Positions 33,728 through 58,350 of a stretch of DNA of 64,000 nt are shown piece after piece. Below the pieces are notes generated by a model. The model worked only from the letters and a program-made list of their open reading frames with translations, had not been told where the DNA came from and ran no database searches. The DNA comes from Solirubrobacter pauli (GTDB lineage Bacteria; Actinomycetota; Thermoleophilia; Solirubrobacterales; Solirubrobacteraceae). Where the stretch lies: positions 1,411,426-1,475,425 of the forward strand of contig NZ_RBIL01000001.1 in assembly GCF_003633755.1 (NCBI RefSeq), in the 5' to 3' direction. How positions within the stretch are numbered: the first letter of the stretch is position 1; each line of letters begins with the position of its first letter. The position numbers were made by a program, and so were the translations under genes.

Positions 33728-33735
33728 ACCCGGCG

Positions 33736-39574: not shown

Positions 39575-39585
39575 ACGGGGGCGCG

Positions 39586-39591: not shown

Positions 39592-39671
39592 TCGGCTTAC
39601 CGACGGTCCAGCGCCATGCCCGGACTTCCGGACAGCCGCGACTTGCGCCTCGCCCGCCGAGCCGGGACACT

Positions 39672-39677
39672 TAGGTC
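39672..39677 (+). promoter_or_regulatory. Putative -10 box (TAGGTC) of the plus-strand kinase genes
   Basis: TAGGTC ends 10 bases before the ATG at 39688. Confidence 0.35.
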
Positions 39678-39687
39678 CGATCTCGCT

Positions 39688-40527: not shown

Positions 40528-40540
40528 GGGACGTGATCCA

Positions 40541-43022: not shown

Positions 43023-44720
43023 TTGAGTCCTGACACGCATTTCGACGCGATCGTCGTCGGCTCCGGGTTCGGCGGAGCGGTGACCGCCTACCGGCTGGCC
43101 GAGGCGGGCAAGCGCGCCCTGGTCCTCGAGCGGGGCCGGCCGTATCCCCCGGGCTCGTTCACGCGCAGCCCGTACCGCGCCCGCGAGAGCTTCTGGGACC
43201 CGCCGCGCGGCCTGACGGGCATGTACCACTACTGGTCCTTCAAGGGCATCGACGCGCTCGTCTCCGCCGGCCTGGGCGGCGGCTCGCTGATCTACGCGAA
43301 CGTCTTCATCCGCAAGGACGAGCGCTGGTTCGTGCATGAGGACCTCAACGACGGCGGGTACGAGCACTGGCCCGTCGACCGCGCGACGCTCGACCCGCAC
43401 TACGACCGCGTCGAGCGGATGATCGGCTTCCAGCGCTTCCCGGTCGAGCACGAGCCGTACGCGTCGACGCCGAAGACGCTCGCCTTCAAGGAGGCCGCGA
43501 CCGCGCTCGGGCTCGAGCACTACCACCCGCCGCTGGCGGTCACGTTCGCCAACGAGGGCCGCCCGCCCGTGCCCGGCGAGGCGATCGTCGAGGAGCTCCC
43601 GAACCTGCACGGGCGCACGCGCACGACCTGCCAGATGTGCGGCGAGTGCGACGTCGGCTGCAACTTCGGCGCCAAGAACACGCTCGACTACAACTACCTC
43701 ACGCACGCCCAGCACCAGGGCGCGGAGATCCGCACGCTCGCGGACGTGCGCCGCTTCGAGCCGCGCGCCGGCGGCGGCTACACCGTCCACTACGCGGACC
43801 TGGACGCCGGCGCGCCCGAGGCTCCGCCGACGGTCACGCTGACGTGCGACCACCTGATCCTGTCGGCGGGCACGCTCGGCACGACCAACCTGCTGCTGCG
43901 CAACCGGTCCGCGCTGCCCGGGCTGAGCAAGAAGATCGGCACGCGCTTCTGCGGCAACGGCGACCTGCTCACGCTCATCCTCAACACCAGCAAGGTCACC
44001 GACGGCAAGCGCGAGCCGCGGATCGTCGACCCGGGCTACGGCCCGGTCATCACGACGACCGCACGCATCCCGGGCGCCGAGGACGGCGGCGAGGGCCGCG
44101 GCTTCTACCTCCAGGACGCGGGCTACCCGCAGCACCTGGCCTGGATCCTGCACGTGCTCTCCGCCCCTGTGCAGCTGTGGCGCTGGCGCACGGGCGCGAC
44201 GCACCTGGTCAAGAACTGGCTCAAGGGCTCGCCGGACACCGACGTCACCGCCCACCTCGCCGACCTGATGCTGCCGAGCGAGCTCTCCTCGGGCGGCCTG
44301 CCGCTCCTGAGCATGGGTCGCGACATCCCCGACGGGCGGATGCACCTCAGGAACGGCCGCTTGGACCTGGACTGGAACCGCAAGGCGTCCGAGGACTACT
44401 TCTCGCGCGTGCGCACGATCTCCCGCGACATGGCGGGCGTACTCGGCGGGCGCTTCGCCGACAACCCGATCTGGTTCCTCAAGCGCGTGATCACCGTGCA
44501 CCCGCTGGGCGGCGCGCCGATGGGCCGCACGCGCGAGGAGGGCGTCGTCGACGCGTTCGGCAACGTCTTCGGCCAGCCCGGCCTGCACGTCGCCGACGGC
44601 TCGGTCATGCCCGGCCCGACCGGCCCCAACCCCAGCTTCACGATCGCGGCGCTCGCGGACCGCTTCGCCGACCAGATCATCGACCCCGACCGGAGAGCCG
44701 CGGAGGCGGCGGCCAGATGA
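43023..44720 (+). CDS. GMC-family FAD oxidoreductase, cholesterol-oxidase-like
   Basis: 565 residues from a TTG start. FAD motif VVGSGFGGAVTAYRLAEAG (about 11-29), GLGGGSLIYANVFIR (flavin contact, about 83-97), and the C-terminal active-site segment HPLGGAPMG with His493. A Cys-rich insert CQMCGECDVGCNFGAKNT (about 205-222) looks like a ferredoxin-type loop and is usual in this bacterial branch. It should oxidise a sterol or other hydroxyl, giving H2O2 or passing electrons on. Its stop overlaps the ATG of the next gene. Cholesterol itself is only the best-known family substrate. Confidence 0.88.
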   Translation: MSPDTHFDAIVVGSGFGGAVTAYRLAEAGKRALVLERGRPYPPGSFTRSPYRARESFWDPPRGLTGMYHYWSFKGIDALVSAGLGGGSLIYANVFIRKDERWFVHEDLNDGGYEHWPVDRATLDPHYDRVERMIGFQRFPVEHEPYASTPKTLAFKEAATALGLEHYHPPLAVTFANEGRPPVPGEAIVEELPNLHGRTRTTCQMCGECDVGCNFGAKNTLDYNYLTHAQHQGAEIRTLADVRRFEPRAGGGYTVHYADLDAGAPEAPPTVTLTCDHLILSAGTLGTTNLLLRNRSALPGLSKKIGTRFCGNGDLLTLILNTSKVTDGKREPRIVDPGYGPVITTTARIPGAEDGGEGRGFYLQDAGYPQHLAWILHVLSAPVQLWRWRTGATHLVKNWLKGSPDTDVTAHLADLMLPSELSSGGLPLLSMGRDIPDGRMHLRNGRLDLDWNRKASEDYFSRVRTISRDMAGVLGGRFADNPIWFLKRVITVHPLGGAPMGRTREEGVVDAFGNVFGQPGLHVADGSVMPGPTGPNPSFTIAALADRFADQIIDPDRRAAEAAAR

Positions 44721-45352
44721 GCGCAACCGTTCGCTTCACCGAGGAGATGCTCGGCCACGTCACGTTCGGCGAGACCGACTACGCGCGTGGCGCGCAGCCG
44801 GACCGCGACGGCTCGGCCGCGTTCATGTTCCACCTCACGATCGAGGTGGCCGACATCGACGCCTTCAGCCAGGACCCGCTGCGGCCCGCGGACGCGCGCG
44901 GCTACGTGCACTGCGACGCGCTGGGCGGCCGGCTGCCCGTCGTCGCCGGGTTCTTCAACCTGTTCGTGGACCAGGAGCCGGGCGTCAAGCACATGCTCTA
45001 CCGGCTGCACTTCTACGACGGCGTCGGGCACCCGCTGACGATGATCGGCCACAAGGTGGTGGAGAACGACGCGGGGTTCGACCTGTGGAAGGACACGACC
45101 ACGCTGTTCACGCGCGTGCTCCGCGGCCACGTCGCCGAGGGGGAGGACGAGGGCGCGGAGGTGGTCGGCTCCGGGATCATCATCATCCGGATGCGAGACT
45201 TCGCCAAGCAGCTCACGACGTTCCGGTCCTCGGGACCGGGCCTCGGCGCGCAGCTCGGCGCGCTCGTCAAGTTCGGGGTGATCTTCGTCCAGCAGCTCGC
45301 CCAGGTGTACCTACGCAGGGGGTCAAAGCAGCGTGTCGCCGCGCAAGGCTAA
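44717..45352 (+). CDS. Unknown protein coupled to the GMC oxidoreductase
   Basis: 211 residues, soluble, mostly beta strands (VRFTEEMLGHVTFGE, FMFHLTIEVADIDAF, HVLYRLHFYDG-like, GSGIIIIRMRDFAKQL) with an amphipathic C-terminal helix. The start overlaps the oxidoreductase stop (ATGA). I recall this domain fused between a GMC oxidoreductase and an alpha/beta hydrolase in other bacteria, which would link it to the hydrolase gene at 53446; this should be checked. No catalytic motif seen. Confidence 0.65.
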   Translation: MSATVRFTEEMLGHVTFGETDYARGAQPDRDGSAAFMFHLTIEVADIDAFSQDPLRPADARGYVHCDALGGRLPVVAGFFNLFVDQEPGVKHMLYRLHFYDGVGHPLTMIGHKVVENDAGFDLWKDTTTLFTRVLRGHVAEGEDEGAEVVGSGIIIIRMRDFAKQLTTFRSSGPGLGAQLGALVKFGVIFVQQLAQVYLRRGSKQRVAAQG

Positions 45353-46070
45353 GCGGCTCAAGGCCGCCGAGGCGGTCAGAACGAGGTCCAGTGGCCGCAC
45401 GCACGTGCTCGGCTTCCTCGCCGGCGGCGCGGTGCTGACCGTGTTCGGCGCCGAGCTCACGCGCGTGTGGCGGCTCGGCACGCTCCCGCGCTCCCGCCAG
45501 ATCCACTCCGAGGAGGAGCGGCGCTCGAAGCCCGTCGAGGCGCTGATGACGCTGCGCGAGGGCTACGCCGTCTCCCGCACGCGCGAGAACGCGCTGTTCA
45601 ACATGCTCGCCTCCTTCACGGTCGCGTTCGGGATCACGCGCGGCATCACGTGGACGATCCGCGAGAAGGGCGGGTTCGGCCCGATCAAGGACGTCGTGGT
45701 CGGCGACCGCCACATCCACCACTTCCTGCCGGGCGGGATCCTCGCGCTCGCGGCCGGCGGCGTCGCCATCGGCACGAAGGGCGAGCAGCTCGACAAGTAC
45801 CTCGCGTTCCCGTTCGGGGTGGGCGTCGCCCTCGTGCTCGACGAGTCCGCGTTGCTGCTCGAGCTCGACGACGTCTACTGGACCGAGGAGGGCGTGCTGA
45901 GCGTCCAGATCGCGTTCGCGGCGATCGCGATGCTGTCCGCGATGGCGTACCTCATCCGCATGCTGCGCAACCCGGAGACGCAGGACTCCGAGTCCGACTG
46001 GGAGCTGGCCGCCAAGGCCTGGGACGACCTCCAGATGAGCTCCGGAGGCGTCCCGGGAATCGGGATCTAG
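45333..46070 (+). CDS. Membrane protein with HIHHF motif, unknown function
   Basis: 245 residues from a GTG at 45333, overlapping the previous gene by 20 bases. Basic N-terminus, a first hydrophobic stretch (about 24-45), then a membrane domain about 90-215 with four helices. GDRHIHHFLPGGILAL (about 125-140) puts three His at a membrane boundary and could bind a metal; LVLDESALLLELDDVYW adds acidic residues inside a helix region. Co-transcription with the oxidoreductase points to the same pathway. Its TAG shares CTAG at 46067-46070 with the convergent gene's stop. Confidence 0.6.
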   Translation: MSPRKAKRLKAAEAVRTRSSGRTHVLGFLAGGAVLTVFGAELTRVWRLGTLPRSRQIHSEEERRSKPVEALMTLREGYAVSRTRENALFNMLASFTVAFGITRGITWTIREKGGFGPIKDVVVGDRHIHHFLPGGILALAAGGVAIGTKGEQLDKYLAFPFGVGVALVLDESALLLELDDVYWTEEGVLSVQIAFAAIAMLSAMAYLIRMLRNPETQDSESDWELAAKAWDDLQMSSGGVPGIGI

Positions 46071-47269
46071 TTCGACTCGGCGTCGACGAGCCGCGGGCCG
46101 TAGGCCGGCGGCGCGATCAGGAAGGCGACGCCGAAGCCGCTCATCACGCCGACCATCAGGGCGCCCACCCACAGGGTGGGCTCCCAGCCGATGCCCTTGT
46201 CGAGCGCGAGGATGCCGTAGTAGGAGATCCACAGCACGGCGGCCGCGATCGGGCCCGCGGTGCGGATGCCGCCGAGCGTCAGCCGCTGTCCGGCGGGCGC
46301 GCGGCTCTGCAGCACGTCGATCGCGAGGCCGGTGAGGATCAGCGGGAAGATCAGCGGCCAGTCGCGGTACTCGGTCATGATGCTCACCAGCAGGCCGTAG
46401 CCGGTGAAGATCAGCGTCATCGCGCCGAACGGGATGCGCCAGCGGCGCAGGAGCAGCAGCGCCGGGCCGAGCAGGATCAGCGTCGTGATGATCATCGACG
46501 CGATGCCGTGGCTGGCGGAGTAGTAGTAGAACGGCCACTGGTCGTCGCCGTAGCCGGTCAGCCCCGCGTTCAGCGACTGCGTCTGGTCGGTGAAGTCGTC
46601 CTTGAAGTTCGCCTGGTAGTCGGCGACGAAGTCGCTCGTCGGCGTGACGTTGGTCATGAACGCAGACAGGTACATCGTGATGAAGCCGGAGACGCCGATG
46701 AACAGCATCGTGCTCAGCAGCACCGGCGCGAAGCCCTTGAAGTCCAGCGCGATGTCCTGCTTGGCCCACATCGACCGGATGCCGGTGGAGCTCACCAGCA
46801 GACCGCCGAAGAACAGCAGCAGGTGCGGCGGCGAGTAGATCGCGTCCACGCCGACCTCGAAGCCGTAGGCGGAGTGCCAGATGAAGTCGGTCGGGCCGCC
46901 GAGGCCGAGCGTGATCAGGCCGAGGATGGCGACGCCGTACCCGACCGGGATGGCTTTGAGGTCCGGGATCAGCGACTTGCGCGGATCAGCGCCGGCGGCG
47001 AGCTGGTACTTCGTGACGAGCAGGCCCACCCACACGCCGATCACGGTCATGCCGGCGTACAGGAACAGGTGCGGCAGCGACCAGAAGGACTCCTGGCCCG
47101 TCTTGTTGTTGTGGCCGCGGCCGTCGAAGAACATCGCGACGATCGGCCACACCGTGAGGGCGGCGGTGATCAGGTCCTCGCGGTACGTGGTCACGGGGCG
47201 CTCGCCGCGCGCCGCCGACGGGGCGCTGCGCGCCATCTGAGTCAGGCCTGCTGCCATGGCGCTGATCAT
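46067..47269 (-). CDS. Polytopic membrane protein, unknown function
   Basis: 400 residues with about nine hydrophobic segments. Two similar boundary motifs occur, SFWSLPHLFLYAGM (about 61-74) and AIYSPPHLLLFFGG (about 141-154), the second shortly after GGPTDFIWH; conserved His beside Pro in both suggests an internal repeat and metal or heme contact. A large outer loop (about 215-245) is rich in Asp and Asn. I do not recognise the family. It lies 34 bases after the flavoprotein gene, so probably in the same operon. Start ATG 47269; ATG 47257 is an alternative. Confidence 0.6.
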   Translation of the reverse strand: MISAMAAGLTQMARSAPSAARGERPVTTYREDLITAALTVWPIVAMFFDGRGHNNKTGQESFWSLPHLFLYAGMTVIGVWVGLLVTKYQLAAGADPRKSLIPDLKAIPVGYGVAILGLITLGLGGPTDFIWHSAYGFEVGVDAIYSPPHLLLFFGGLLVSSTGIRSMWAKQDIALDFKGFAPVLLSTMLFIGVSGFITMYLSAFMTNVTPTSDFVADYQANFKDDFTDQTQSLNAGLTGYGDDQWPFYYYSASHGIASMIITTLILLGPALLLLRRWRIPFGAMTLIFTGYGLLVSIMTEYRDWPLIFPLILTGLAIDVLQSRAPAGQRLTLGGIRTAGPIAAAVLWISYYGILALDKGIGWEPTLWVGALMVGVMSGFGVAFLIAPPAYGPRLVDAESN

Positions 47270-47303
47270 CTTCCGAACGCGCGGAAAAAGCGAGTCCGAA
47301 AGG

Positions 47304-48308
47304 TCAGGTGGCGGCGGCGATGTGCCGCGCCACGAGCGTCGCGGCCGCGGGCGCGCCGCGCACGAAGCCGAAGAACGGCCCGAAGTCGGCGGTCGCGGTG
47401 AAGCCCGGCAGGTACAGGCCGGGGCGCGCGACGGACTGCATGTGCTCGTCGAGCGCGGCGGTCGCGAGCGGCGGGAGGTACGGCACGCGGGCCAGATCGG
47501 CGGCGTAGCCGGTGGCGAGCACGATCCGGTCGGGGCGCAGGCGAGCGCCGTCGCTGAGCTCGACGTGTCCGCTTGCGGACACCACCTCGCCGATGTGGAC
47601 GTGCGCGTCCACGATCCGCGGGGCGAGCCACGGCTCGAGCGTGAGCCGCCCGACCTCCCAGAACCGTCGTGCGATCGCCGTGCGGTCGGCCTCCGGCAGC
47701 GTGCGCCAGTAGTCGGGCACGTCGAGCGTGCGCCGGACGTGCTCGTCCACGAACGCCCAGCTCGTCTCGGCGAAGCGCGGCTGCGCGTGGCGGTGGACGA
47801 CGTCCACGCGCGCGGCGCCGTGCTCGAGCAGCAGCGCGGCGGTCTCGTAGGCCGACTGGCGCCCGCCGACGATCAGGTACTCGGCGCCGGACGCGTCCGC
47901 GAAGTCGACGTAGTCGACGGTGTGGGCCTCGTCGGTGGCCCACCCGGGCCGGTGCTGGAAGTACGCGACGCCGGGCGCGGCGACCACGAACGGCGCGTCG
48001 GGCAGCGCGGTCAGCTGCTCCTCCACCACCTCGATGCCGGCCTCGTCCTGGAACCAGGCGGCGTAGTCGAGGAACAGCGGCAGCGGGATCGGGTCGGGCG
48101 GGTCGGGGCAGAACGCGAGGAACGTCAGCTCACCCGCGTGGTCCATGTGCCAGTCGGGCCCGCTGCGCAGGAGCATCCCGGCCGGCATGTGGTCGCGCCA
48201 GAAGCCCATCGGCCGGCCGTACACCGTCACGGACAGCCCGCGGTCGCGCAGCGCCTTGGCCGTCGCGAGCCCGTACGGCCCGGCCCCGATGACGGCGACG
48301 TCGGTCAT
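47304..48308 (-). CDS. FAD-dependent NAD(P)-binding oxidoreductase (flavin monooxygenase-like)
   Basis: 334 residues. FAD motif VIGAGPYGLATAKALRDRG (about 5-23), second nucleotide motif LIVGGRQSAYETA (about 144-156), and LATGYAADL near the C-terminus, typical of FMO-like and lysine-hydroxylase-type flavoproteins. It is shorter than full FMO enzymes (450+). Likely hydroxylates or reduces a small substrate with NADPH. ATG at 48308 overlaps the thiolase stop (ATGA). Confidence 0.82.
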   Translation of the reverse strand: MTDVAVIGAGPYGLATAKALRDRGLSVTVYGRPMGFWRDHMPAGMLLRSGPDWHMDHAGELTFLAFCPDPPDPIPLPLFLDYAAWFQDEAGIEVVEEQLTALPDAPFVVAAPGVAYFQHRPGWATDEAHTVDYVDFADASGAEYLIVGGRQSAYETAALLLEHGAARVDVVHRHAQPRFAETSWAFVDEHVRRTLDVPDYWRTLPEADRTAIARRFWEVGRLTLEPWLAPRIVDAHVHIGEVVSASGHVELSDGARLRPDRIVLATGYAADLARVPYLPPLATAALDEHMQSVARPGLYLPGFTATADFGPFFGFVRGAPAAATLVARHIAAAT

Positions 48309-49429
48309 GCGCGCAGCAGGATCGCCTCACCCTGGCCGCCACCGCCGCACAGCGTCGCGACGCCGACGCCTCCCCCACGTCGGCGCAGCTCGTACGCCAG
48401 CGTGAGCACGAGGCGCAGGCCGGAGCCCGCGAGCGGGTGGCCGATCGCGACCGCGCCGCCGTTGACGTTCACGCGGTCCAGGTCGATCGCGAGCGCGTCG
48501 GCGGAGGCGATGACGACGCCGGCGAACGCCTCGTTGATCTCCCACAGGTCGACATCGGCCGCGCTGAGGCCGTGACGCTCGAGCACGAGCCGCGACGCCT
48601 CGGCCGGCCGCAGGTGCAGCGTCGAGTCGGGGCCGGCCACCACCGCGCGCCCGACGACCTCCGCCAGCGGGTCGCTCGCCCGGTCGGCCGTGGTGATGAT
48701 CGCGGCGGCCGCGCCGTCGGAGACCTGCGACGCGTTGCCCGCGGTGATCGTGCCGTCGGCGGTGAACGCGGGCGCCAGATCCGCGAGGGTCTCGTAGGCG
48801 GTCTCGCGCACGCCCTCGTCGTGCGTCAGGTCGCCGATCGGGGCGATCTCGTCGGCGAGCCGGCCTCGGCCCGCGAGCGCCCGCGCGTGCGACGCGGCCG
48901 CGAGCCGGTCCTGCGCCTCGCGGGTGACGCCGAGCCGCACGTTCTCGGCGTCCGACATCGCGCCCATGCCCTCGCCCGCGATCGAGCAGTGCAGGCCGTC
49001 GTGGACCATCACGTCGGTCATGGCCCGCGCGCCCATCTTCGTGCCCGGCCGCAGGTGGATCGCGTGCGGCGCCCGGGTCATCGAGTCGAACCCGCCCGCG
49101 AGCACCGTCGTCGCCTCCCCGGCCCGGATCATCGCGGCGGCCATCGCCACCGCGCTCATCGACGCCAGGCACACGTCGTTGAGCGTGATCCCCGGCACCG
49201 TCCGCCCGACCCCGCCGGCCAGCGCGGCCCGCCGCCCGGGGTTCTGCCCGTTCGCGGCCTGCAGGACGTTGCCGACGGCGATGTAGTCGGGCCGCAGGTC
49301 CGTGCGCTCGAGCGCCGCCCGCACGGCGTGCGCGCCCAGCTCGACCGCGTCGATCGCCGACAGCGCGCCGTTGAGCTTGCCGACCGGGGTCCGCGCTCCC
49401 GCGGCGATCACGACTGGCTGCGTGCCCAT
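48305..49429 (-). CDS. Acetyl-CoA acetyltransferase (thiolase)
   Basis: 374 residues. Thiolase catalytic residues are visible: acylated Cys in NDVCLASMSAV (about 88), His in the NGGAVAIGHPLAGSG segment (about 328) and Cys in ATLCGGGGQG (about 358); NEAFA lies near 298. It condenses or cleaves acyl-CoA, here probably in fatty-acid or sterol side-chain breakdown. ATG at 49429; a TTG one codon upstream is an alternative. First gene of a three-gene minus-strand operon. Confidence 0.9.
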   Translation of the reverse strand: MGTQPVVIAAGARTPVGKLNGALSAIDAVELGAHAVRAALERTDLRPDYIAVGNVLQAANGQNPGRRAALAGGVGRTVPGITLNDVCLASMSAVAMAAAMIRAGEATTVLAGGFDSMTRAPHAIHLRPGTKMGARAMTDVMVHDGLHCSIAGEGMGAMSDAENVRLGVTREAQDRLAAASHARALAGRGRLADEIAPIGDLTHDEGVRETAYETLADLAPAFTADGTITAGNASQVSDGAAAAIITTADRASDPLAEVVGRAVVAGPDSTLHLRPAEASRLVLERHGLSAADVDLWEINEAFAGVVIASADALAIDLDRVNVNGGAVAIGHPLAGSGLRLVLTLAYELRRRGGGVGVATLCGGGGQGEAILLRA

Positions 49430-49451
49430 CAAGTGTGAGATGGTCGCACGT

Positions 49452-50327
49452 ATGAAGCGGCTCCTGACCCTGACGCGCCTGATGCTCCTCTCCCGCCGTG
49501 AGCCCGTGTCACGGACGCCCGCGGAAGTGGGGCTCGACTACGAGCCGGTCGCGTTCCCGGCGTCCGACGGCGTCGGCATCAAGGGCTGGTTCGTGCCCGC
49601 CGCGGGCGAGGGTCCCAAGCCGACGATCGTGTTCGTGCACGGGTGGATGTGGAACCGGCTCGGCAACGTCGCCGGCCGCGCGCCGATCGACGACCGCGAC
49701 GTGGACTTCCTGCCCGCCACGAAGGCGCTGCACGACGCGGGCTACAGCGTGCTGCTGTACGACGTCCGCCGCCACGGCGAGAGCCAGAAGGGCAAGGGGC
49801 TCGTGTCGTTCGGGCCGCTGGAGAAGAACGACTTCGTCGGCGCGGTCAACTACCTGCGCACGCGGGCGGACGTGGACGGCGAGCGGATCGGGTCGATCGG
49901 GATCTCGATGGGCGGCACGATCGCGCTCTACGGCGCCCCGGAGTGCCAGCCGATCAAGGCGATCCTGGCGGTCCAGCCGGCCAAGGTCACGACCTTCAAC
50001 AACAACTTCGCGCTCGACCAGTTCGGGATCTTCGGGCCGCTGATCGTCGCGCCGATCGAGCTGATCTACCGGGCGACCAAGACGCCGCCACCGAGCGTGC
50101 AGGATCCGGGTGAGCCGGCCAAGCGGCTCGACGGGACCGTCGTCAAGTACGTGCAGGGCACGGGCGACCGCTGGGGCACGATGGTCGACGTCCTGGGCTT
50201 CGCGGAGGGCACGCCGACCCTGGACGGGCCGGTCGTGCACTACCCCTCGAGCGGCCGCTACGACGGCTACCGCTACGTGTCGGCCGAGACCGAGGACATC
50301 GTCGACTTCTTCCAGCGGCGGCTGTAG
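49452..50327 (+). CDS. Alpha/beta-hydrolase (serine esterase type)
   Basis: 291 residues, no convincing signal peptide but a basic-hydrophobic N-terminus (MKRLLTLTRLMLLSRRE). Oxyanion region VFVHGWMW (about 58), DVRRHGES, nucleophile GISMGG with Ser152. The expected Asp and His near the C-terminus are not clear (DGYRYVSAETED), so activity is less certain. Divergent from the thiolase gene with only 22 bases between starts, so both transcripts are probably leaderless. Confidence 0.78.
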   Translation: MKRLLTLTRLMLLSRREPVSRTPAEVGLDYEPVAFPASDGVGIKGWFVPAAGEGPKPTIVFVHGWMWNRLGNVAGRAPIDDRDVDFLPATKALHDAGYSVLLYDVRRHGESQKGKGLVSFGPLEKNDFVGAVNYLRTRADVDGERIGSIGISMGGTIALYGAPECQPIKAILAVQPAKVTTFNNNFALDQFGIFGPLIVAPIELIYRATKTPPPSVQDPGEPAKRLDGTVVKYVQGTGDRWGTMVDVLGFAEGTPTLDGPVVHYPSSGRYDGYRYVSAETEDIVDFFQRRL

Positions 50328-50335
50328 GAAGCTCC

Positions 50336-51160
50336 TTAAGGCTTCGGCTTGGGCATCTGCGAACGCAACAGCGCGTCGAAGCCCGCGTCCGGCAGCACCT
50401 TGCGCAGCGACATGAACAGCCCGGCGGACGGCGCCACGCGGTAGCGGGCGCGCGGCTTGTCGGACGTCAGCGCCTTGAGGATCGTCTCGCCGACGGCCTC
50501 GGCGCTGCACGCCAGCATCCCGAGCGCGCCCGTCGTGTAGCTCGACGTGACCTCGGCCACCTCGTCGTTGAAGCTCGCGTACGGGCCCGGCTCCTGCACG
50601 CGCCGGCCGACCGCGGTCTTGCCCAGCGGCGTCTTGACGAAGCCGGGCTCGACCAGCACGGTCTTGACGCCGAACGGCCGCGTCTCGTAGCGCAGCGCGT
50701 CGCTGATCGCCTCCAGCGCGTGCTTGGTGCCGCAGTAATAGCCCGTGCCCGGCCAGGTGAACTTGCCGTTCATCGAGCCGACCGTGACGATCGTGCCGGC
50801 CCGCCGCTCGCGCATCTGGGGCAGCACGAGCTGCGTCAGCCGCACCGGGCCGAAGACGTTGGTCTCGAACAGCCCGCGGACGCGGTCCATCGGGACCGAC
50901 TCGATCGCCCCGACCTCCTGGATGCCGGCGTTGTTGACCAGCGCGTCGATGCCCTGCGGGATCGCGGCGACGGCCGCGGCCATCGACTCCTCGCTCGTGA
51001 CGTCGAGCGCCAGCGTCTTGCAGCCGTCCGCTTCGAGGTCGGCGATCGACTCCGTCCGGCGCGCGGTCGCGTACACCTCGAACCCGTTCTTCGCCAGCAC
51101 CTGCGCCGTGGCGCGGCCGATGCCCGACGAGCACCCGGTGATCAGCACGGTCTTGGTCAT
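50336..51160 (-). CDS. Short-chain dehydrogenase/reductase
   Basis: 274 residues. Classical SDR features: cofactor loop ITGCSSGIGRAT (about 6-17), LDVTSEES, NNAGI (about 78), Ser in GSMNGK (about 127) and YxxxK in YYCGTKHAL (about 142). Probably NADP-linked given Arg residues after the second strand (ATARRTE). ATG at 51160 overlaps the MMPL gene stop. Lipid or sterol alcohol/ketone oxidation would suit the region. Confidence 0.88.
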   Translation of the reverse strand: MTKTVLITGCSSGIGRATAQVLAKNGFEVYATARRTESIADLEADGCKTLALDVTSEESMAAAVAAIPQGIDALVNNAGIQEVGAIESVPMDRVRGLFETNVFGPVRLTQLVLPQMRERRAGTIVTVGSMNGKFTWPGTGYYCGTKHALEAISDALRYETRPFGVKTVLVEPGFVKTPLGKTAVGRRVQEPGPYASFNDEVAEVTSSYTTGALGMLACSAEAVGETILKALTSDKPRARYRVAPSAGLFMSLRKVLPDAGFDALLRSQMPKPKP

Positions 51161-53346
51161 GCGGTCGTAGCCACCTCTTGTTCGGCCTTCTTCGTCACGG
51201 GAGTCTCGGAGGACTCGAAGTCCATGTTCGGCAGCACCCGGTCCAGCCACTTCGGGATCCACCAGTTCTTGTCGCCCATCAGCTCCATCGTCGTCGGCAC
51301 GAGGACGAGGCGCACGATCGTCGCGTCGAGCGCGATCGCCACGGCCAGGCCGACGCCGATCTCCTTGACCTGCGGCACGCCCGTGCCGGCGAAGATCGCG
51401 AACACCGCGACCATGATCAGCGCCGCGCTGGAGATCGTCTTGGCGCTCGCGGCCAGGCCCTGGGCGACGGCCTGCTGCGTGTCGTGCGTCGCGTGGTAGC
51501 GCTCCTTGATGCGCGAGAGCATGAAGACCTCGTAGTCCATGCTCAAGCCGAACACGACGGCCAGCAGCAGCGCGGGCGTGATCGCCTGCACGTAGCCGAG
51601 CGACTCGAAGCCGGTGACGGAGTCGAACCAGCCCCACTGGAAGACCATCACGAGCACGCCGTAGGACGCGGCGACCGACAGCGCGTTCATCAGCACCGCC
51701 TTGATCGGCAGCACGACGCTGCGCAGCACGACCAGCAGCACGAGGAAGCTCAGCACCACCACGAACAGGCCGACCTTCCACAGCGACCCGGAGATGACCG
51801 CGGTGTCGTCGAGGTTCTGCGCGGTCGGACCGCCGACGTGCAGCGTGCCGCCCGTCGGGGGCAGCAGGCCGCGCAGGCGCTTGACCAGCGCCACCGTCGC
51901 CTCGCTCTCGGGCGACTGCTCGGGCGTGACGAGGATCAGCGCCTTCTGGCCGTCCTCGGAGATCACCGGATCCTGCACCGCGCGCACGTTCTCCAGCCGC
52001 TCGAGGTCACCCTTGAACGAGGACAGCGCCGTCTGGTCGACCGGCCCGCGGAAGTCCGCGACCAGCTCCACCATCCCGAGCGAGCCCGGCCCGCCGAGCT
52101 GCTCGGACGCGAGCTCGAACCCGACGCGCGTCTCGAAGTCCTTCGGGAACATCGCGATCGCCGCCGTGTTCTCCTTCATCACGAGCGCGGGTGACGCGAT
52201 CGCGAGCATGATGGCCGTCGCCGCGAGCGCGAACGGCAGCGGGCGGCGCATCAGCATCGCCGTCCAGCGCTCCCAGAAGGTCGGCCCGGTCCGCGGCGGG
52301 CGGCGCCGCTTCAAGCGGCCGATCAGCTTCCCCGGCTCGGACACGCGGTGCCCGAGCGCGGCGATCAGCGCCGGCAGCAGCGTGACCGCCGCCAGCACGG
52401 CGATGCCGACGACCACGATCGCGCCGACCGCCATCGAGCGCACGACGGTCGCGTCGATCAGGAACAGCCCGGCCAGCGCGACGATCACCGTCACGCCGCT
52501 GAACGCCACCGCCATGCCGGAGGTGCGCAGCGCCACGGCCCGGGCGTCGTCGGCCGAGTGGCCCGCGCCCAGCTCCTCGCGGTAGCGGGCGAGGATGAAC
52601 AGCGAGTAGTCCACCGCCACGCCGATGCCGAGCATCGACGCCATGTTGGTCACGAAGGTCGACATGCCGTAGACCTGCGAGAGGAAGAAGATGATCGCGC
52701 CGGTGACGACGACCGCGGCGACGCCGAGCGCGAGCGGCAGCGCGGCCGCCGCGAGCGAGCCGAAGACGATCAGCAGGATGATCAGCACGATCGGCAGCCC
52801 GAAGAGCTCCGCCTGCTCGAGGTCCTCCTTGGACAGCTCCTGGATGCCCGCCCACAACGCGCTCTGCCCGACGAGGTGGACCGCGAGGTCGTCGCCCGCC
52901 TCCCCCGCGTGCAGGTTCTCCCGCATGACCGTGGCCGCGTCGACGGCCTCGTCGCGGTCGCCCTCGACGACGAGCGGCATGATCACCACCGGGTCCGTCG
53001 ACGCCCGCGCGGCGTCGGCGGCCTGCGGGTCGAGCCGGACCGCGTCGACGTCCTTGAAGCCGTCACGCTCGACGCGGTCGACCGCCGCGGCGAGCTTCGC
53101 CGCGTCGCCCGAGCGGTTGTCGAAGACCACCGACAGCATCTCGGCCGGCCGGCCGAAGTCCCGGCCGAGCGCCTCGGACACGACCTGCGAGCCCGAGCCG
53201 GCGCTCTCGAAGCCGCCGCCCGTCAGGTTCTCGGTCTGCCGCCCGGCGAACGGAATCGAGACCACGACGATGGCCAACCAGATGATCAGGACGATTCGGC
53301 GACGCCGAGCGATGAAGCGCTCGAGTCGGTCCATGGCGGCTTGCAT
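51157..53346 (-). CDS. MMPL/RND-family transporter
   Basis: 729 residues, two repeats of a large outer domain followed by a six-helix block. Membrane helix 1 lies at about 17-34. The MMPL signature GIGVAVDYSLFILARYREEL (about 242-261) and its second copy VVFGLSMDYEVFMLSRIKERY (in part, near 600) carry the Asp-Tyr pair used in proton relay. It should export lipids, siderophores or drugs across the membrane. The start is ATG 53346 (TAGAAA box 6 bases upstream) or ATG 53334. Followed by the SDR gene with ATGA overlap; divergent from the hydrolase operon. Confidence 0.9.
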   Translation of the reverse strand: MQAAMDRLERFIARRRRIVLIIWLAIVVVSIPFAGRQTENLTGGGFESAGSGSQVVSEALGRDFGRPAEMLSVVFDNRSGDAAKLAAAVDRVERDGFKDVDAVRLDPQAADAARASTDPVVIMPLVVEGDRDEAVDAATVMRENLHAGEAGDDLAVHLVGQSALWAGIQELSKEDLEQAELFGLPIVLIILLIVFGSLAAAALPLALGVAAVVVTGAIIFFLSQVYGMSTFVTNMASMLGIGVAVDYSLFILARYREELGAGHSADDARAVALRTSGMAVAFSGVTVIVALAGLFLIDATVVRSMAVGAIVVVGIAVLAAVTLLPALIAALGHRVSEPGKLIGRLKRRRPPRTGPTFWERWTAMLMRRPLPFALAATAIMLAIASPALVMKENTAAIAMFPKDFETRVGFELASEQLGGPGSLGMVELVADFRGPVDQTALSSFKGDLERLENVRAVQDPVISEDGQKALILVTPEQSPESEATVALVKRLRGLLPPTGGTLHVGGPTAQNLDDTAVISGSLWKVGLFVVVLSFLVLLVVLRSVVLPIKAVLMNALSVAASYGVLVMVFQWGWFDSVTGFESLGYVQAITPALLLAVVFGLSMDYEVFMLSRIKERYHATHDTQQAVAQGLAASAKTISSAALIMVAVFAIFAGTGVPQVKEIGVGLAVAIALDATIVRLVLVPTTMELMGDKNWWIPKWLDRVLPNMDFESSETPVTKKAEQEVATTA

Positions 53347-53352
53347 TGGGAG

Positions 53353-53358
53353 TTTCTA
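53353..53358 (-). promoter_or_regulatory. Putative -10 box (TAGAAA) of the MMPL gene
   Basis: TAGAAA within CGGATAGAAA ends 6 bases before the ATG at 53346. The divergent operon has a near-identical CGGATAGAAC box. Confidence 0.4.
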
Positions 53359-53429
53359 TCCGAGTCCGGCGTGCCTGTGGGAATACCGCCCTGACCGTTC
53401 GGCGCTTGCATTCGCCCGCCGAGCGCGGA

Positions 53430-53435
53430 TAGAAC
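53430..53435 (+). promoter_or_regulatory. Putative -10 box (TAGAAC) of the hydrolase-DyP operon
   Basis: TAGAAC within CGGATAGAAC ends 10 bases before the TTG at 53446. The shared CGGATAGAA element with the MMPL promoter hints at common control. Confidence 0.4.
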
Positions 53436-53445
53436 ACGCACACCC

Positions 53446-54450
53446 TTGACCGAGACACATCCCGTTTCCACCTCCGACGGCACCGAGATCCGTCTGACCC
53501 GCCACCAGTTCGGCAACAAGGGTCCGATCGTCCTGGCGCCGGGCTACGGCAACGCCGCGAGCGCGTTCGCCATCGACACCGTGCCGAAGAACTGGGTCCA
53601 GTACCTGGGCGAGCACGGCTACGACGTCTGGCTGCTGGACTACCGCGCCAGCCCCGAGCTGCCGGCGAGCCGCACGCAGTTCACCGTCGACGACATCGCG
53701 CTGCGCGACTGGCCCGCGGCGGTGGACACGGTCCGCGAGCGGACCGGCGAGGACACCGTCCAGGTCTTCGGGCACTGCGTCGGCGGGCTGTCGCTGTTCA
53801 TGGCGATGGGCGCCGGCATGGAAGGTGTCCGCAGCGCGACCTTCTCCAGCCTCGCCGGCAACCCGATCCCGACCCCCGGCAACCAGGCCCGCGCCTGGGC
53901 GCGGATGGCGACGCTGTTCAAGCTGCTCGGGATCAAGTTCCTCGACGTCGAGTACGACCCGAAGCGCTGGGACGGCAAGGCGATCGAGGCCGTGATGCGG
54001 CTCGTGCCCTTCAAGCACATCTACAACACGCCGATCGCGCGCCGGATCTACTTCATCTACGGCGACGTCTACGACTACGAGAACATCAACCGCCCGACGA
54101 TGGAGCAGGCGGTGCCCGGCTTCTTCGGCGGCGGCAACCTGACGTTCTTCGAGCACATCTCGCTGATGATCCGCGCCAGCGAGGCGCGCGACGCCGGCGG
54201 CAAGGACGCCTACTGGGCCAACCTCGAGAACTTCAAGGTCCCGATCAACTTCATCACCGGCGAGCACAACAAGATGTTCGTCCCGAAGGGCCTGCAGCGC
54301 TCGTATGACACGCTGCGCAAGGCCCACGGCAACAGCCTGTACTCCCACGACGTGATCTCCGGCTACGCGCACCTGGATCTGTGGCTGGGCTCGAACGCCG
54401 AGCGCGACGTGTGGCCGACCGCCCTTGCCGAGCTGGAGAAGCACAACTAG
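53446..54450 (+). CDS. Alpha/beta-hydrolase with Cys in the nucleophile position
   Basis: 334 residues from a TTG. Fold landmarks: LAPGYGNAASAF oxyanion region (about 30-41), LLDYRASPELP, nucleophile elbow GHCVGG with Cys111 where Ser is usual, and a late GEHNKMF (Asp/Glu region) and SGYAHLDLW with the likely catalytic His. Cys nucleophiles are known in dienelactone hydrolases; I also recall this branch fused to GMC oxidoreductases. It starts a five-gene operon with gaps of -20 to +4 bases ending in a DyP peroxidase. Substrate probably an ester, lactone or acyl group. Confidence 0.82.
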   Translation: MTETHPVSTSDGTEIRLTRHQFGNKGPIVLAPGYGNAASAFAIDTVPKNWVQYLGEHGYDVWLLDYRASPELPASRTQFTVDDIALRDWPAAVDTVRERTGEDTVQVFGHCVGGLSLFMAMGAGMEGVRSATFSSLAGNPIPTPGNQARAWARMATLFKLLGIKFLDVEYDPKRWDGKAIEAVMRLVPFKHIYNTPIARRIYFIYGDVYDYENINRPTMEQAVPGFFGGGNLTFFEHISLMIRASEARDAGGKDAYWANLENFKVPINFITGEHNKMFVPKGLQRSYDTLRKAHGNSLYSHDVISGYAHLDLWLGSNAERDVWPTALAELEKHN

Positions 54451-54452
54451 CC

Positions 54453-55904: not shown

Positions 55905-55908
55905 CGAG

Positions 55909-56439
55909 ATGGGGAACGTCCACGGCCGGATGACCGGCCTGACGCTCTTCACGCCCATCCGGCCACAGTGGGTGTGGTTCCTGAAGATCGGCCTGCCGCT
56001 CACCCGGCACCTGCCGTTCATGGCGCGCCACATCCTGCAGTTCAACTTCATCAAGTTCGTGCGCTGGACGATCGTGCCCGGGCTCGACGGCGAGCGGCTC
56101 AACTACCGGTACCTGTACTTCGAGAGCAACTTCGACGGGCCCTGGCAGCACTACATCGACGCGTTCGCCTACGTGATCCCGCTCGACATCCGCGTCACCT
56201 GGGGACGCGGGCCGGGCTTCCCGGCGCCGCCGCCCGCCGAGCCGCTGAAGGCGTGGATCGCCATGAACTCGATGGACGGCGGCACCTACTACTGCGCGCA
56301 CGCGGACGAGTCGACGCGGATGGTCAACAACGCGCTGGCCGTGAAGGAGCGCTTCGACGCGCTCGACCGCGACGTGCCGCCCGACGAGTTCCAGGCCGCG
56401 TGGGAGCGGTTCCTGAGCGATGCGCAGGCGCATCTCTGA
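55909..56439 (+). CDS. Unknown protein of the hydrolase-DyP operon (a)
   Basis: 176 residues. A hydrophobic patch (PQWVWFLKIGLPLTRHLPFMARH in part) near the N-terminus could associate with membrane; the rest is mixed alpha/beta with FESNFDGPWQHYIDAF (about 72-87), YVIPLDIRVTWG and MNSMDGGTYYCAHADES. I do not recognise the family. It starts four bases after the previous gene and overlaps the next by 20 bases, so it is clearly an operon member. Confidence 0.55.
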   Translation: MGNVHGRMTGLTLFTPIRPQWVWFLKIGLPLTRHLPFMARHILQFNFIKFVRWTIVPGLDGERLNYRYLYFESNFDGPWQHYIDAFAYVIPLDIRVTWGRGPGFPAPPPAEPLKAWIAMNSMDGGTYYCAHADESTRMVNNALAVKERFDALDRDVPPDEFQAAWERFLSDAQAHL

Positions 56440-56974
56440 GCGCGGCCACCGGGTCGGCGGCGCCTACGCGCTGACGACGTTCGCGCGCGTGCTGCCCGGC
56501 CGCGAGGACGAGCTCGAGGCCTACCTGGAGGCGCTGCCGACCGGCGCCGACAGCCCGTTCGCGCGGATCGACACCCTGCACATCGCCCGCGTGCAGCTGT
56601 TCCGCGCGCTCGTGCACCAGGGCCCGAAGCAGCGCAAGACGGACACGCTGCGGCACGCGCACCTGGTCTTCACGAGCACGATCGACGGCGACCTCGAGCC
56701 GTACCTGGACTGGCTCGCCGCGCTCGTCCCCGAGTGCGACGAGTGGTGGGGCCGCTGCGTCGGCTACCCCGGCCGGCACGACCGCGGGGCGTTCCACGCG
56801 TGGGTGCGCTCGATCCAGGCGCGGCCCGGGCTGTTCCGCTCGGCGATGCCGGACGCGTCCGTGGTCGAAGTGCGCGAGGCGCTCGCCCTGCGGGAGCGCG
56901 TGATCGACTTCGCGGTCGAGGCGCAGGGCCTGTCCGCCGAGGCGCTGCAAGCGCGTTTCCGGGAGCGCTTCTAG
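56420..56974 (+). CDS. Unknown protein of the hydrolase-DyP operon (b), ferredoxin-like fold suspected
   Basis: 184 residues. The beginning (GGAYALTTFARVLPGREDELEAYLEAL, in pieces) has the look of a dimeric alpha/beta-barrel (monooxygenase-type) unit, and HAHLVFTSTIDGDLEPYLDWL could be a second one. DyP peroxidases share that fold, so this may be a domain that is fused to or partners the peroxidase. It overlaps the previous gene by 20 bases and its TAG overlaps the peroxidase GTG by one base. Conserved Cys/Trp cluster PECDEWWGRCVGYPG. Confidence 0.55.
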   Translation: MRRRISERGHRVGGAYALTTFARVLPGREDELEAYLEALPTGADSPFARIDTLHIARVQLFRALVHQGPKQRKTDTLRHAHLVFTSTIDGDLEPYLDWLAALVPECDEWWGRCVGYPGRHDRGAFHAWVRSIQARPGLFRSAMPDASVVEVREALALRERVIDFAVEAQGLSAEALQARFRERF

Positions 56975-58350
56975 TGCTCGGCCGTCCGCCCAACGTGCCC
57001 CGCCGCGCGCCGAAGGCGTCGCACATCGACCTCGGCGACATCCAGGGCAACGTCCTGCGCGGGTACACGCACCCGGCGGCGGCGTACCTGTTCCTGCGGA
57101 TCGTCGACGCAGGCGCCGCGCGCGCGTTGATGCGGCGGATGCTGCCGCAGGTCGCGACCGCCGCGCCGTGGGCCGACGGTGCACCGGCGACCGCCATGAA
57201 CGTCGCGTTCACGTTCGCCGGGCTGCAGGCGCTCGGGCTGCCGGACGCGGTGCTCGCGTCCTTCCCCGAGGCGTTCCGGGACGGCATGGCGACGCGCGCC
57301 GGCCGGCTCGGCGACCGTGGGCCGAGCGCGCCCGAGGCGTGGGAGGACGGGCTCGGCACGGGCGAGGCGCACGTGCTGGTCACGGTCTACGCCGTCGACC
57401 GGGAGCACCTGACCGCGGCGGTGGCGAAGATCATCGGGGAGGACGCGGACTCCAACGCGGTCTCGCTCGTCAACCTGCAGCGCGCGGAGGCGCTGGCGGG
57501 CGGCCGCGACCACTTCGGCTTCTTCGACGGGATCGCCCAGCCCGCCGTGCGCGGCGCGGGCGTCGAGCCCCGGCCCGGCGACGGCCAGCCGGACGGGGCC
57601 GGCGGCTGGCGCGAGCTCGCCACCGGGGAGGTCCTGCTCGGCTACGAGGACGAGGACGGCACGCTGCCCAAGGCGCCGCTCGCCCCGTTCGACCGCAACG
57701 GGACGTTCGTCGTCTACCGCAAGCTCGCGATGGACCCGGCGGCCTTCCGGCGCTTCATGGCGGCACAGGACTACCCGGGCGGCGCGCAGGCGCTGGCCGC
57801 GAAGATCGTCGGCCGCTGGCCCGACGGCACGCCGCTCGCGCTCTCCCCCGACACCCCCGACGCGTCCGTCTCCTCCGACCCCGCCCGGATCAACCACTTC
57901 GGCTACGCCGACGACCCGACCGGCCTCAAGTGCCCGCTGGGCGCGCACATCCGCCGCGCGAACCCGCGCGAGGCGCACGGCTTCTTCGACGGCCGGCTGA
58001 CCAACCGCCACCGGATCGTCCGCCGCGGCCGGGCCTACGGCGCGCCGCTCGCGCCCGGCGCGCTCGAGGACGACGGCGTCGACCGGGGCCTGGTGTTCGT
58101 GTGCTTCCAGGCCGACATCTGGCGCCAGTTCGAGACGATCCAGGCGCTGTGGATCGACGACGGCGACCCGTTCGGGCTGGGCCGCGACAAGGACTTCCTG
58201 GTGGGCGAGCCGCACGGCACCGCCGGGAAGATGACGATCCAAGGCCATCCGCCGCACTTCCTCAAGCCGCAGCCGCGCTTCGTGACGCTCCGCGGCGGCG
58301 AGTACCTGTTCCAGCCGTCGATGCGGGCGCTGCGCGAGCTCAGCGCCTGA
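56974..58350 (+). CDS. DyP-type heme peroxidase
   Basis: 458 residues from the GTG at 56974. DyP hallmarks: distal GFFDGI with Asp185 (GxxDG) and proximal heme ligand His325 in CPLGAHIRRANPRE. Further family segments are IQGNVLRGYTHP near the N-terminus and FVCFQADIWRQFETIQ near 375. No signal peptide or Tat motif, so it is cytosolic or carried by a partner. It uses H2O2, which the GMC oxidoreductase 12 kb upstream could make. Its tail overlaps the convergent MocA-family gene by 11 bases. Confidence 0.93.
   Translation: MLGRPPNVPRRAPKASHIDLGDIQGNVLRGYTHPAAAYLFLRIVDAGAARALMRRMLPQVATAAPWADGAPATAMNVAFTFAGLQALGLPDAVLASFPEAFRDGMATRAGRLGDRGPSAPEAWEDGLGTGEAHVLVTVYAVDREHLTAAVAKIIGEDADSNAVSLVNLQRAEALAGGRDHFGFFDGIAQPAVRGAGVEPRPGDGQPDGAGGWRELATGEVLLGYEDEDGTLPKAPLAPFDRNGTFVVYRKLAMDPAAFRRFMAAQDYPGGAQALAAKIVGRWPDGTPLALSPDTPDASVSSDPARINHFGYADDPTGLKCPLGAHIRRANPREAHGFFDGRLTNRHRIVRRGRAYGAPLAPGALEDDGVDRGLVFVCFQADIWRQFETIQALWIDDGDPFGLGRDKDFLVGEPHGTAGKMTIQGHPPHFLKPQPRFVTLRGGEYLFQPSMRALRELSA

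What the first reader, a model, noticed from the sequence alone, without database searches (positions are those of the whole stretch)
43023..58350. Split GMC oxidoreductase-hydrolase-DyP system in a lipid-oxidation region
A cholesterol-oxidase-like GMC enzyme with a coupled beta-rich protein and a His-rich membrane protein lies near a five-gene operon: Cys-type hydrolase, long nitroreductase-like protein, two unknown proteins and a DyP peroxidase. A thiolase/flavoprotein/membrane-protein operon, SDR and MMPL exporter lie between. GMC enzymes give H2O2 and DyP consumes it, and I recall fusions of the GMC, partner and hydrolase parts elsewhere. Together they could oxidise, open and export or take in a sterol-like or terpenoid substrate. 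Four of the proteins have no known function.
Basis: partly seen in the sequence, partly recalled or inferred. Interest (0 to 1): 0.6.

Follow-up and report, generated by a model that had tools for sequence, protein, structure and literature searches.

The report
Split three-part oxidase, substrate unknown
In a genus of soil bacteria, the parts of an uncharacterised three-part alcohol-oxidising enzyme, which some other bacteria make as one long protein, lie in two neighbouring gene groups, one of them beside a peroxidase; the parts belong together in general, but the substrate and the link to the peroxidase are not shown.

Summary
The recalled fusion is confirmed: GMC oxidase, the 44717 'partner' and the Cys-type hydrolase share one open frame (1146-1179 codons) in Rhizobium, Azospirillum, Leptospira and Bernardetia; GMC+partner and partner+hydrolase fusions also exist. 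Of 29 partner loci read outside the genus, 25 carry the GMC, 20 the hydrolase, 17 both. The block is syntenic in 4 of 4 other Solirubrobacter genomes, and the genome holds one convincing hydrolase of this family.

Against one system: the hydrolase groups with the fused proteins, the GMC and partner with unfused actinobacterial relatives, so the hydrolase looks swapped in. Across 396 phylum genomes partner and nitroreductase-like protein do not co-occur beyond chance. The five-gene operon was seen only in Solirubrobacter; in the loci read elsewhere the nitroreductase-like gene sits by a catalase/haem-peroxidase fusion in 5 of 23, and the two small unknowns, which are paralogues, by a DyP in 8 of 8.

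Best reading: a split oxidase-partner-hydrolase enzyme whose hydrolase joined a peroxidase operon. A lipid-like substrate is inferred; nothing shows a sterol or terpenoid.

The parts
43023..44720 (+). GMC-family FAD oxidoreductase, nearest solved relatives cholesterol oxidases; FAD motif GSGFGG, H493/N536 at the places of the GMC active-site pair (role recalled), CxxCGxCxxGC stretch
   Evidence: Pfam, PDB sequence search, alignment of 10 GMC sequences
44717..45352 (+). partner protein, 211 aa, no known family; second part of the three-part enzyme
   Evidence: no family; alignment A1 of 14; fusions
45333..46070 (+). membrane protein with HIHH and LDExALLLxLxDVYW motifs; family common in the phylum
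46067..47269 (-). membrane protein, no family; neighbour in 3 of 4 other Solirubrobacter genomes, role not claimed
47304..48308 (-). FAD/NAD(P) flavoprotein (PF13738)
48305..49432 (-). thiolase
49449..50327 (+). alpha/beta hydrolase of another family (not counted as a part of the system)
50336..51154 (-). short-chain dehydrogenase
51157..53346 (-). MMPL transporter
53446..54450 (+). Cys-type alpha/beta hydrolase, third part of the enzyme; invariant C111, N275, H309; only convincing member of its family in the genome
54453..55904 (+). long protein with nitroreductase-like sequence blocks, 483 aa
55909..56439 (+). small unknown protein 1, paralogue of the next gene; family that travels with DyP
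56420..56974 (+). small unknown protein 2, paralogue of the previous gene
56971..58350 (+). DyP-type peroxidase with GFFDG and HIRRANPR motifs; nearest solved relative 8RE3/8RE2 (Deinococcus radiodurans DyP)

Best explanation
The GMC oxidase, its partner protein and the Cys-type hydrolase are the three parts of one enzyme system that other bacteria encode as adjacent genes or as a single chain. In Solirubrobacter the hydrolase gene stands apart from the GMC-partner group, probably after replacing an older one, and heads a second operon 8.7 kb away with a nitroreductase-like protein, two paralogous small proteins and a DyP peroxidase. Most likely course: the GMC oxidises an alcohol group of a small hydrophobic (lipid-like) molecule to an aldehyde or ketone and makes H2O2; the partner protein holds or passes on the product; the Cys hydrolase attacks it through a covalent Cys adduct, cleaving or transferring an acyl group; the DyP, with its two small companions, uses or removes peroxide; the nitroreductase-like protein, probably a flavoprotein, carries out a further redox step. 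SHOWN: that the three parts belong together in other genomes (fusions, gene order), that the two small proteins go with DyP, and the synteny of the block in the genus. INFERRED: that this hydrolase serves this GMC, that the two operons form one pathway, all chemistry, and the substrate class.
For: Single-frame fusions of all three parts in 4 loci, GMC+partner in 9, partner+hydrolase in 4; of 29 partner loci read 25 with GMC, 20 with hydrolase, 17 with both (62 loci searched). Of these 29, twelve helped to build the partner profile, nine the GMC profile and ten the hydrolase profile, but their gene order was first seen by tblastn with the window proteins. The hydrolase lies within 150 bases of the partner in 12 of the 20 loci, 348-354 bases in 3, 1.8-2.0 kb in 3 (L033, L036-L039, L048-L050, L052, L135, L140, L144, L148 and L149 are at 30-148 bases, i.e. 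14; L145-L147 at 348-354; L051, L137, L138 at 1.8-2.0 kb). Own genome has one strong member of the hydrolase family, that of the second operon (E 4e-118; next hit E 3e-5). Same order in 4 of 4 other Solirubrobacter genomes, GMC-hydrolase gap 12.3-14.6 kb. Hydrolase lineages seem to be exchanged elsewhere too: loci L138/L140 have fusion-type GMC and partner but a hydrolase of another clade. Invariant Cys, Asn and His in 20 of 20 aligned hydrolases. Small proteins with DyP in 8 of 8 loci outside the operon, and no DyP hit in the 52 other loci searched outside S. deserti; in two Microvirga plasmids the small-protein and DyP hits also lie about 140 bases apart. Nitroreductase-like gene beside a catalase-like + An_peroxidase fusion in 5 of 23 loci. 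Partner domain and hydrolase also follow a carrier/thioester-reductase-type stretch in 3 loci (Pfam-tested in L145 only), so the pair goes with enzymes that make an alcohol or aldehyde.
Against: Hydrolase tree puts the window with the fused proteins (support 100/99), GMC and partner trees put it with unfused actinobacterial relatives, so the parts have different histories. Partner and nitroreductase-like families co-occur no more than chance (p 0.29 without the own genome). 0 of 23 nitroreductase-like loci read outside the genus carry hydrolase, DyP, small proteins or partner. 9 of 29 partner loci lack the hydrolase nearby; three of these (L034, L136, L139) are on contigs under 7.1 kb, the other six are not. 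The invariant Asn and the Cys are sequence facts only. No activity data of any kind.
Confidence: 0.45

Rival explanations
1. Two independent neighbours. The GMC-partner pair works without a hydrolase in Solirubrobacter, and the second operon is a separate peroxidase operon that recruited a fusion-type hydrolase for its own substrate. Their closeness is inherited from one ancestor of the genus and has no functional meaning.
For: Discordant trees; no co-occurrence of the families beyond chance; 9 of 29 partner loci without hydrolase nearby; the five-gene operon not seen in the loci read outside the genus.
Against: The genome has no other convincing hydrolase of this family, and 17 of 29 loci elsewhere keep all three parts together; synteny is kept in genomes whose GMC and partner differ by up to 18% and 28%.
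Confidence: 0.4
2. Fatty-acid hydroperoxide (oxylipin) pathway: the second operon is a variant of the catalase-like/haem-peroxidase plus nitroreductase-like operons of rhizobia, with DyP in place of the fused peroxidase, and the hydrolase releases or takes over the fatty acid.
For: Nitroreductase-like gene beside, or two genes after, a catalase-like + An_peroxidase protein in Rhizobium phaseoli, R. jaguaris, Phyllobacterium and Nonomuraea (PF00199 and PF03098 tested in the R. phaseoli and Nonomuraea proteins, 942 and 974 aa), and 2.2 kb from one in L123. Proteins matching the N-terminal part of that peroxidase profile lie near the small-protein/DyP pair in L118 and L119, though Pfam finds no family in the L118 one. 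A catalase-related hydroperoxide lyase fused to a lipoxygenase is described in the abstract of PMC5617202 (listing); the Nostoc dioxygenase/catalase-related pair (Brash and others) is recalled, not read.
Against: Only 5 of 23 nitroreductase-like loci have that peroxidase, four of them used to build its profile; 2 of 23 have a molybdopterin oxidoreductase instead and 16 neither, so the family is not tied to one chemistry. The own genome was not searched for such a peroxidase.
Confidence: 0.2
3. Sterol or hopanoid oxidation: the GMC is a cholesterol-oxidase-like enzyme, the hydrolase opens or cleaves the product, MMPL and thiolase serve transport and side-chain breakdown.
For: Nearest solved relatives of the GMC are cholesterol oxidases (E 6.5e-27); thiolase and MMPL nearby.
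Against: 206.7 bits against the equivalog cut-off of 850; no family that I recognise as sterol-specific among 10 genes flanking module-A relatives in 5 loci. I did not search the genome for sterol-degradation genes.
Confidence: 0.08

Closest known systems
Cholesterol oxidase, GMC type (PDB 1COY, 1B4V)
   Same: FAD motif, HPLGG and NPxxT stretches, best solved-structure match of the window GMC
   Different: only partial sequence match (206.7 bits against 850 needed); comes with a partner protein and a Cys hydrolase, which cholesterol oxidases are not known to have (recalled)
Poly(R)-hydroxyalkanoate synthase (PhaC)
   Same: alpha/beta hydrolase fold with a Cys in the nucleophile elbow; weak family match over the elbow (TIGR01836 33 bits, TIGR01838 32 bits)
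   Different: far below cut-off (365 and 623); invariant Asn at the place where, by recall, an Asp is usual
DyP peroxidase of Deinococcus radiodurans (8RE2/8RE3, PMC10820274, passages read)
   Same: nearest solved DyP over nearly the full length, 273 bits; the paper names 8RE2/8RE3 as this protein and its mutant and places it in class C, new class V
   Different: the Deinococcus enzyme has Met in the fifth place of GXXDG, the window DyP the usual GFFDG and two paralogous small proteins beside it; the words operon, gene cluster and neighbour are absent from that paper's text
Catalase-like + animal haem peroxidase fusion with a nitroreductase-like neighbour (rhizobia, Nonomuraea)
   Same: the neighbour protein is 33-40% identical to the window's 54453 protein
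   Different: the window operon has no such peroxidase; a DyP stands there
Single-chain GMC-partner-hydrolase proteins (e.g. WP_063474201, WP_149201188)
   Same: all three parts, same order; hydrolase part 34-39% identical
   Different: one chain instead of three genes in two groups; annotated only as 'alpha/beta fold hydrolase' or 'GMC oxidoreductase'

Membership tests
GMC oxidoreductase | both GMC domains above Pfam cut-off | tested here: met
   PF05199 63.0 (cut-off 24.6), PF00732 49.6 (23.0)
GMC oxidoreductase | FAD dinucleotide motif and His/Asn active-site pair conserved | tested here: met
   GSGFGG at 13, H493 and N536 invariant in 10 aligned sequences; the role of the pair is recalled
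Cholesterol oxidase (NF058674) | equivalog score of 850 bits | tested here: not met
   206.7 bits
Cholesterol oxidase (NF058674) | activity on 3-beta-hydroxysterols | not testable with these tools
   needs enzyme assay
GMC-partner-Cys hydrolase system (named here) | three parts adjacent or fused in other genomes | tested here: met
   17 of 29 partner loci read have all three; fusions of each neighbouring kind
GMC-partner-Cys hydrolase system (named here) | the window's hydrolase shares the evolutionary history of its GMC and partner | tested here: not met
   discordant trees
PHA synthase | family score above cut-off | tested here: not met
   33.0 against 365.3 and 31.9 against 622.7
PHA synthase | Cys in the nucleophile elbow | tested here: met
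   C111 invariant in 20 of 20; that it acts as nucleophile is inferred
DyP-type peroxidase | DyP family scores above cut-off | tested here: met
   PF21105 53.1 (27.5), PF20628 22.7 (20.0), TIGR01413 103.3 (100.5)
DyP-type peroxidase | haem binding and peroxidase activity | not testable with these tools
   GFFDG and HIRRANPR motifs present
Nitroreductase (PF00881) | Pfam match above cut-off | tested here: not met
   window protein no match at E<=1; 2 of 11 family members match, best E 0.0034
Nitroreductase (PF00881) | profile-profile similarity in the FMN fold | tested here: inconclusive
   three short blocks in the same order, scores 30.0, 20.7 and 14.3; only the first of these exceeds the best of 30 column shuffles by much (17.8) and the unrelated control alignments (up to 22.3); 8 of 8 weak solved-structure hits are of this superfamily; the predicted model failed (pLDDT 31)

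The most novel reading that the evidence does not exclude
An oxidase-coupled acyl-transfer machine: the GMC (or, in the PKS/NRPS-type loci, a thioester reductase) delivers an aldehyde into the partner domain, the hydrolase's Cys captures it as a hemithioacetal, this is oxidised to a thioester, and a Cys-Asn-His alpha/beta hydrolase then transfers the acyl group to an acceptor, with the H2O2 by-product spent by the DyP and its two small companions in the same pathway. That would be a modular enzyme class for which I know of no described member.
Probability: 0.08. Interest if true: 0.75.

Novelty: new variant of a known kind. Interest (0 to 1): 0.45.

Why it matters
The GMC-partner-Cys hydrolase unit was found in Actinomycetota, Pseudomonadota, Spirochaetota and Bacteroidota; the single-chain forms are annotated only by one of their domains, and the window's partner protein matches no Pfam or NCBIfam model. 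Its fusion states give a direct, testable prediction of a multi-part enzyme. The two small proteins, found beside a DyP in 8 of 8 loci read, and the nitroreductase-like protein, beside haem peroxidases in some, offer a handle on the open question of what bacterial DyPs do, which the Deinococcus DyP paper calls unclear (PMC10820274, passages).

Tried and rejected
Structure prediction of one small protein (10-row alignment) and of the nitroreductase-like protein (5-row alignment) gave pLDDT 48 and 31; I drew no fold conclusion and ran no fold search. Profile searches of the partner family (one hit, E 1.2, an SH2-adaptor fragment) and of the small-protein family (no hit at E<=10) against solved structures gave nothing.

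The His-rich membrane protein was considered as a fourth part: its family is in 54 of 396 phylum genomes and does not co-occur with the partner beyond chance (4 shared, expected 2.7), though it lies 1.5 kb from the partner in L035 and near a small-protein/DyP pair in L116; left out. It does co-occur with the nitroreductase-like family (13 shared of 396, expected 3.1, p 6e-7), but 11 of these 13 genomes are of the window's own class and 9 of one family in it (kinship columns), so shared ancestry is the simpler reading; linkage was not tested.

Other co-occurrences: small proteins with nitroreductase-like protein 3 shared, expected 0.4, p 0.005; without the own genome 2 shared, p 0.04, on different contigs in both (G148: C959 and C865; G462: C19 and C14). 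Small proteins with partner 2 shared, expected 0.35, p 0.04; without the own genome 1 shared, p 0.26. These rest on one or two genomes and were not used.

Loci not read: the counts of 29, 23 and 8 loci are of stretches that I fetched. Of the 20 phylum genomes with a partner hit G247 and G480 were not fetched, nor the second-contig hits of G241 and G367; of 10 plasmid records with a partner hit 5 were read; of 19 with a nitroreductase-like hit 6 were read. A weak small-protein hit in Rhizobium rosettiformans (E 3e-3) was not followed.

Paper searches listed no paper that, from title and start of abstract, describes the three-part system; that covers open-licence PubMed Central papers and those terms only, and I read passages of one paper alone.

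Corrections to my own steps: one search used a nitroreductase profile with minus-strand loci misread; it was rebuilt, and only the control scores are cited. The last line printed says 63 loci; the list has 62. The hydrolase alignment, from which the hydrolase profile was made, kept short tails beyond the stop codon in five rows (L033, L036-L039); alignment A4 did not.

Full report
WHAT IS THERE. The window lies in a 7.1-Mb genome. A genome of the same genus (G117) has the same 106,912-base contig as Solirubrobacter deserti, so the window is from Solirubrobacter; in the five named records the nitroreductase-like protein is 86-93% identical. In the first gene group the GMC oxidoreductase (43023-44720), a 211-residue partner protein (44717-45352) and a His-rich membrane protein (45333-46070) overlap by 4 and 20 bases; in the second, hydrolase (53446-54450), nitroreductase-like protein (54453-55904), two small proteins (55909-56439, 56420-56974) and a DyP peroxidase (56971-58350) follow one another with gaps of 2, 4, -20 and -4 bases. 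Between them lie a membrane protein, a flavoprotein, a thiolase, another alpha/beta hydrolase, an SDR and an MMPL transporter.

THE THREE-PART ENZYME. tblastn of the partner protein against plasmid records found 10 records; five were read. In four of them the match lies in a protein of 1120-1169 residues annotated as 'alpha/beta fold hydrolase' or 'GMC oxidoreductase' (Rhizobium leguminosarum, Leptospira borgpetersenii, Azospirillum oryzae, Bernardetia), and all three window proteins align to these single chains in order. In the fifth, a Pseudonocardia plasmid, the hydrolase is divergent to an adjacent GMC-partner pair. In five of eight order-level genomes outside the genus with a partner hit the three parts are neighbours. 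Profile searches of 62 fetched loci (tally) give 29 partner loci outside Solirubrobacter: 25 with GMC, 20 with hydrolase, 17 with both. GMC and partner share one frame in 9, partner and hydrolase in 4, all three in 4. Partner and hydrolase lie 30-148 bases apart in 14 of the 20, 348-354 in 3, and 1.8-2.0 kb in 3. Of the four loci without a GMC one (L034) is a 4.5-kb contig; the other three (L145-L147) have the partner stretch at the end of a protein with carrier and reductase-type sequence, with the hydrolase gene next. In L145, the one tested, Pfam confirms a phosphopantetheine site and a thioester-reductase-type domain (PF07993), and the gene before it is a PKS/NRPS protein. Twelve of the 29 loci were used in the partner profile, nine in the GMC and ten in the hydrolase profile, so matches there are by construction; their gene order was seen first by tblastn.

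THE HYDROLASE. Alignment of 20 members shows invariant Cys (C111 of the window protein, in H-C-x-G), Asn (N275, in G-x-x-N) and His (H309, in H-x-D). A Cys in the nucleophile elbow is known from PHA synthases (recalled), but the family scores are far below cut-off. That the Asn stands where Asp is usual is my recall. The own genome has one strong member, the window's (E 4e-118), and one doubtful hit at E 3e-5.

HISTORY. Maximum-likelihood trees of 20 hydrolases, 19 partners and 18 GMC proteins place the window GMC (inside a 12-row actinobacterial group, 100/100) and partner (13-row group, 100/99) with unfused or two-part actinobacterial relatives, but the window hydrolase with the four fully fused proteins (6-row group, 100/99). 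L138 and L140 show the opposite mismatch: fusion-type GMC and partner, hydrolase of another clade. So hydrolases seem to have been exchanged between lineages of this system, and the Solirubrobacter one is such a case. This is compatible with functional replacement and also with independence of the two operons.

THE SECOND OPERON. The two small proteins are paralogues (E 2e-8). Their family occurs in 7 of 396 phylum genomes. In 8 of 8 loci read outside the window operon, among them a second copy in the own genome (L121) and Granulicella, a DyP lies 38-1269 bases away; none of the other 52 loci searched outside S. deserti has a DyP hit. Two Microvirga plasmids, not fetched, show both hits about 140 bases apart. 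The nitroreductase-like family was found in 23 of 396 phylum genomes and 19 plasmid records. In 23 loci read, 5 have a catalase-like plus animal-haem-peroxidase protein (four used in that profile, one, L123, not), 2 a molybdopterin oxidoreductase directly upstream, 16 neither, and 0 have hydrolase, DyP, small proteins or partner. Its profile finds only nitroreductases and flavin reductases among solved structures, weakly (8 of 8 hits, E 0.07-1.2), and aligns with nitroreductases in three short blocks of the same order, of which one is clearly above shuffled controls. The window protein itself matches no Pfam family.

DO THE OPERONS BELONG TOGETHER? Within the genus the block is kept: in S. deserti, S. 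phytolaccae, S. taibaiensis and S. soli (4 of 4) GMC, partner, His-rich protein, flavoprotein, thiolase, MMPL, hydrolase and nitroreductase-like gene lie in the same order, with 12.3-14.6 kb between GMC and hydrolase, against 8.7 kb in the window. The differences: all four have a second MMPL gene in the stretch, three have the 46067-type membrane protein and S. soli does not show it, and in S. soli the SDR lies elsewhere. Across 396 phylum genomes partner (20) and nitroreductase-like protein (23) share 3 genomes, expected 1.2 (p 0.10), or 2 without the own genome (p 0.29); the genomes are related, so these p-values are rough. In one of these, G019, both families lie on one contig about 80 kb apart.

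MECHANISM. The most likely working model is an oxidase-partner-hydrolase enzyme on a hydrophobic alcohol, with a peroxidase operon attached. Basis: GMC enzymes oxidise alcohols and many reduce O2 to H2O2 (established for the family); the partner-hydrolase pair also follows a thioester-reductase-type enzyme, whose usual products are aldehydes or alcohols (established for that family), so the pair probably acts on such a product (inference). A lipid-like substrate is suggested by the cholesterol-oxidase-like GMC, by the MMPL and thiolase neighbours and by the peroxidase contexts of the nitroreductase-like family; none of these is proof. A hydropathy scan found no 19-residue hydrophobic stretch in GMC, partner, hydrolase, nitroreductase-like protein, small proteins or DyP; together with the lack of any seen leader this suggests a cytoplasmic reaction, but no signal-peptide test was run.

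NOVELTY. The parts fall in known superfamilies except the partner and the two small proteins, for which no Pfam or NCBIfam family was found. I found no description of the three-part unit in the paper listings searched, which is a limited search. I rate it a new variant of a known kind.

Noticed in passing
L145:7853-11481, L146, L147 (genomes G245, G297): Carrier-protein + thioester-reductase-type protein that ends in the partner domain, followed by the Cys hydrolase; in L145 after a PKS/NRPS protein. A possible natural-product release module.
   Followed up: partly
L121:9545-12530 (own genome, about 1.57 Mb from the window): A second small-protein/DyP pair in the own genome, with what looks by eye like a DUF4331-type protein between them (name recalled, not searched).
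   Followed up: partly
L053, L054, L057, L058, L123: Catalase-like + animal haem peroxidase fusion near the nitroreductase-like gene, in three of them (L057, L058, L123) with a thiamine-diphosphate enzyme; looks like a recurrent peroxidase operon.
   Followed up: partly
window 43629-43661 (GMC residues 203-213): CxxCGxCxxGC stretch in the GMC; three of its four Cys are invariant in 10 aligned relatives. It resembles a metal or Fe-S ligand set, not tested.
   Followed up: no
window 32952-33713 (+): Frame with an ordinary short nitroreductase domain at 33231-33644 (PF00881, 73.6 bits), the only match of that model in the own genome; next to it, within 33553-34506, a Ku-like protein (by eye).
   Followed up: no
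window 38747-41848: Three Ser/Thr protein kinase genes in a row, the last with a GAF domain, one gene away from the GMC group.
   Followed up: no
window 45333-46070: His-rich membrane protein family with HIHH and LDExALLLxLxDVYW motifs, in 54 of 396 phylum genomes, no Pfam family; possible metal site in the membrane.
   Followed up: partly
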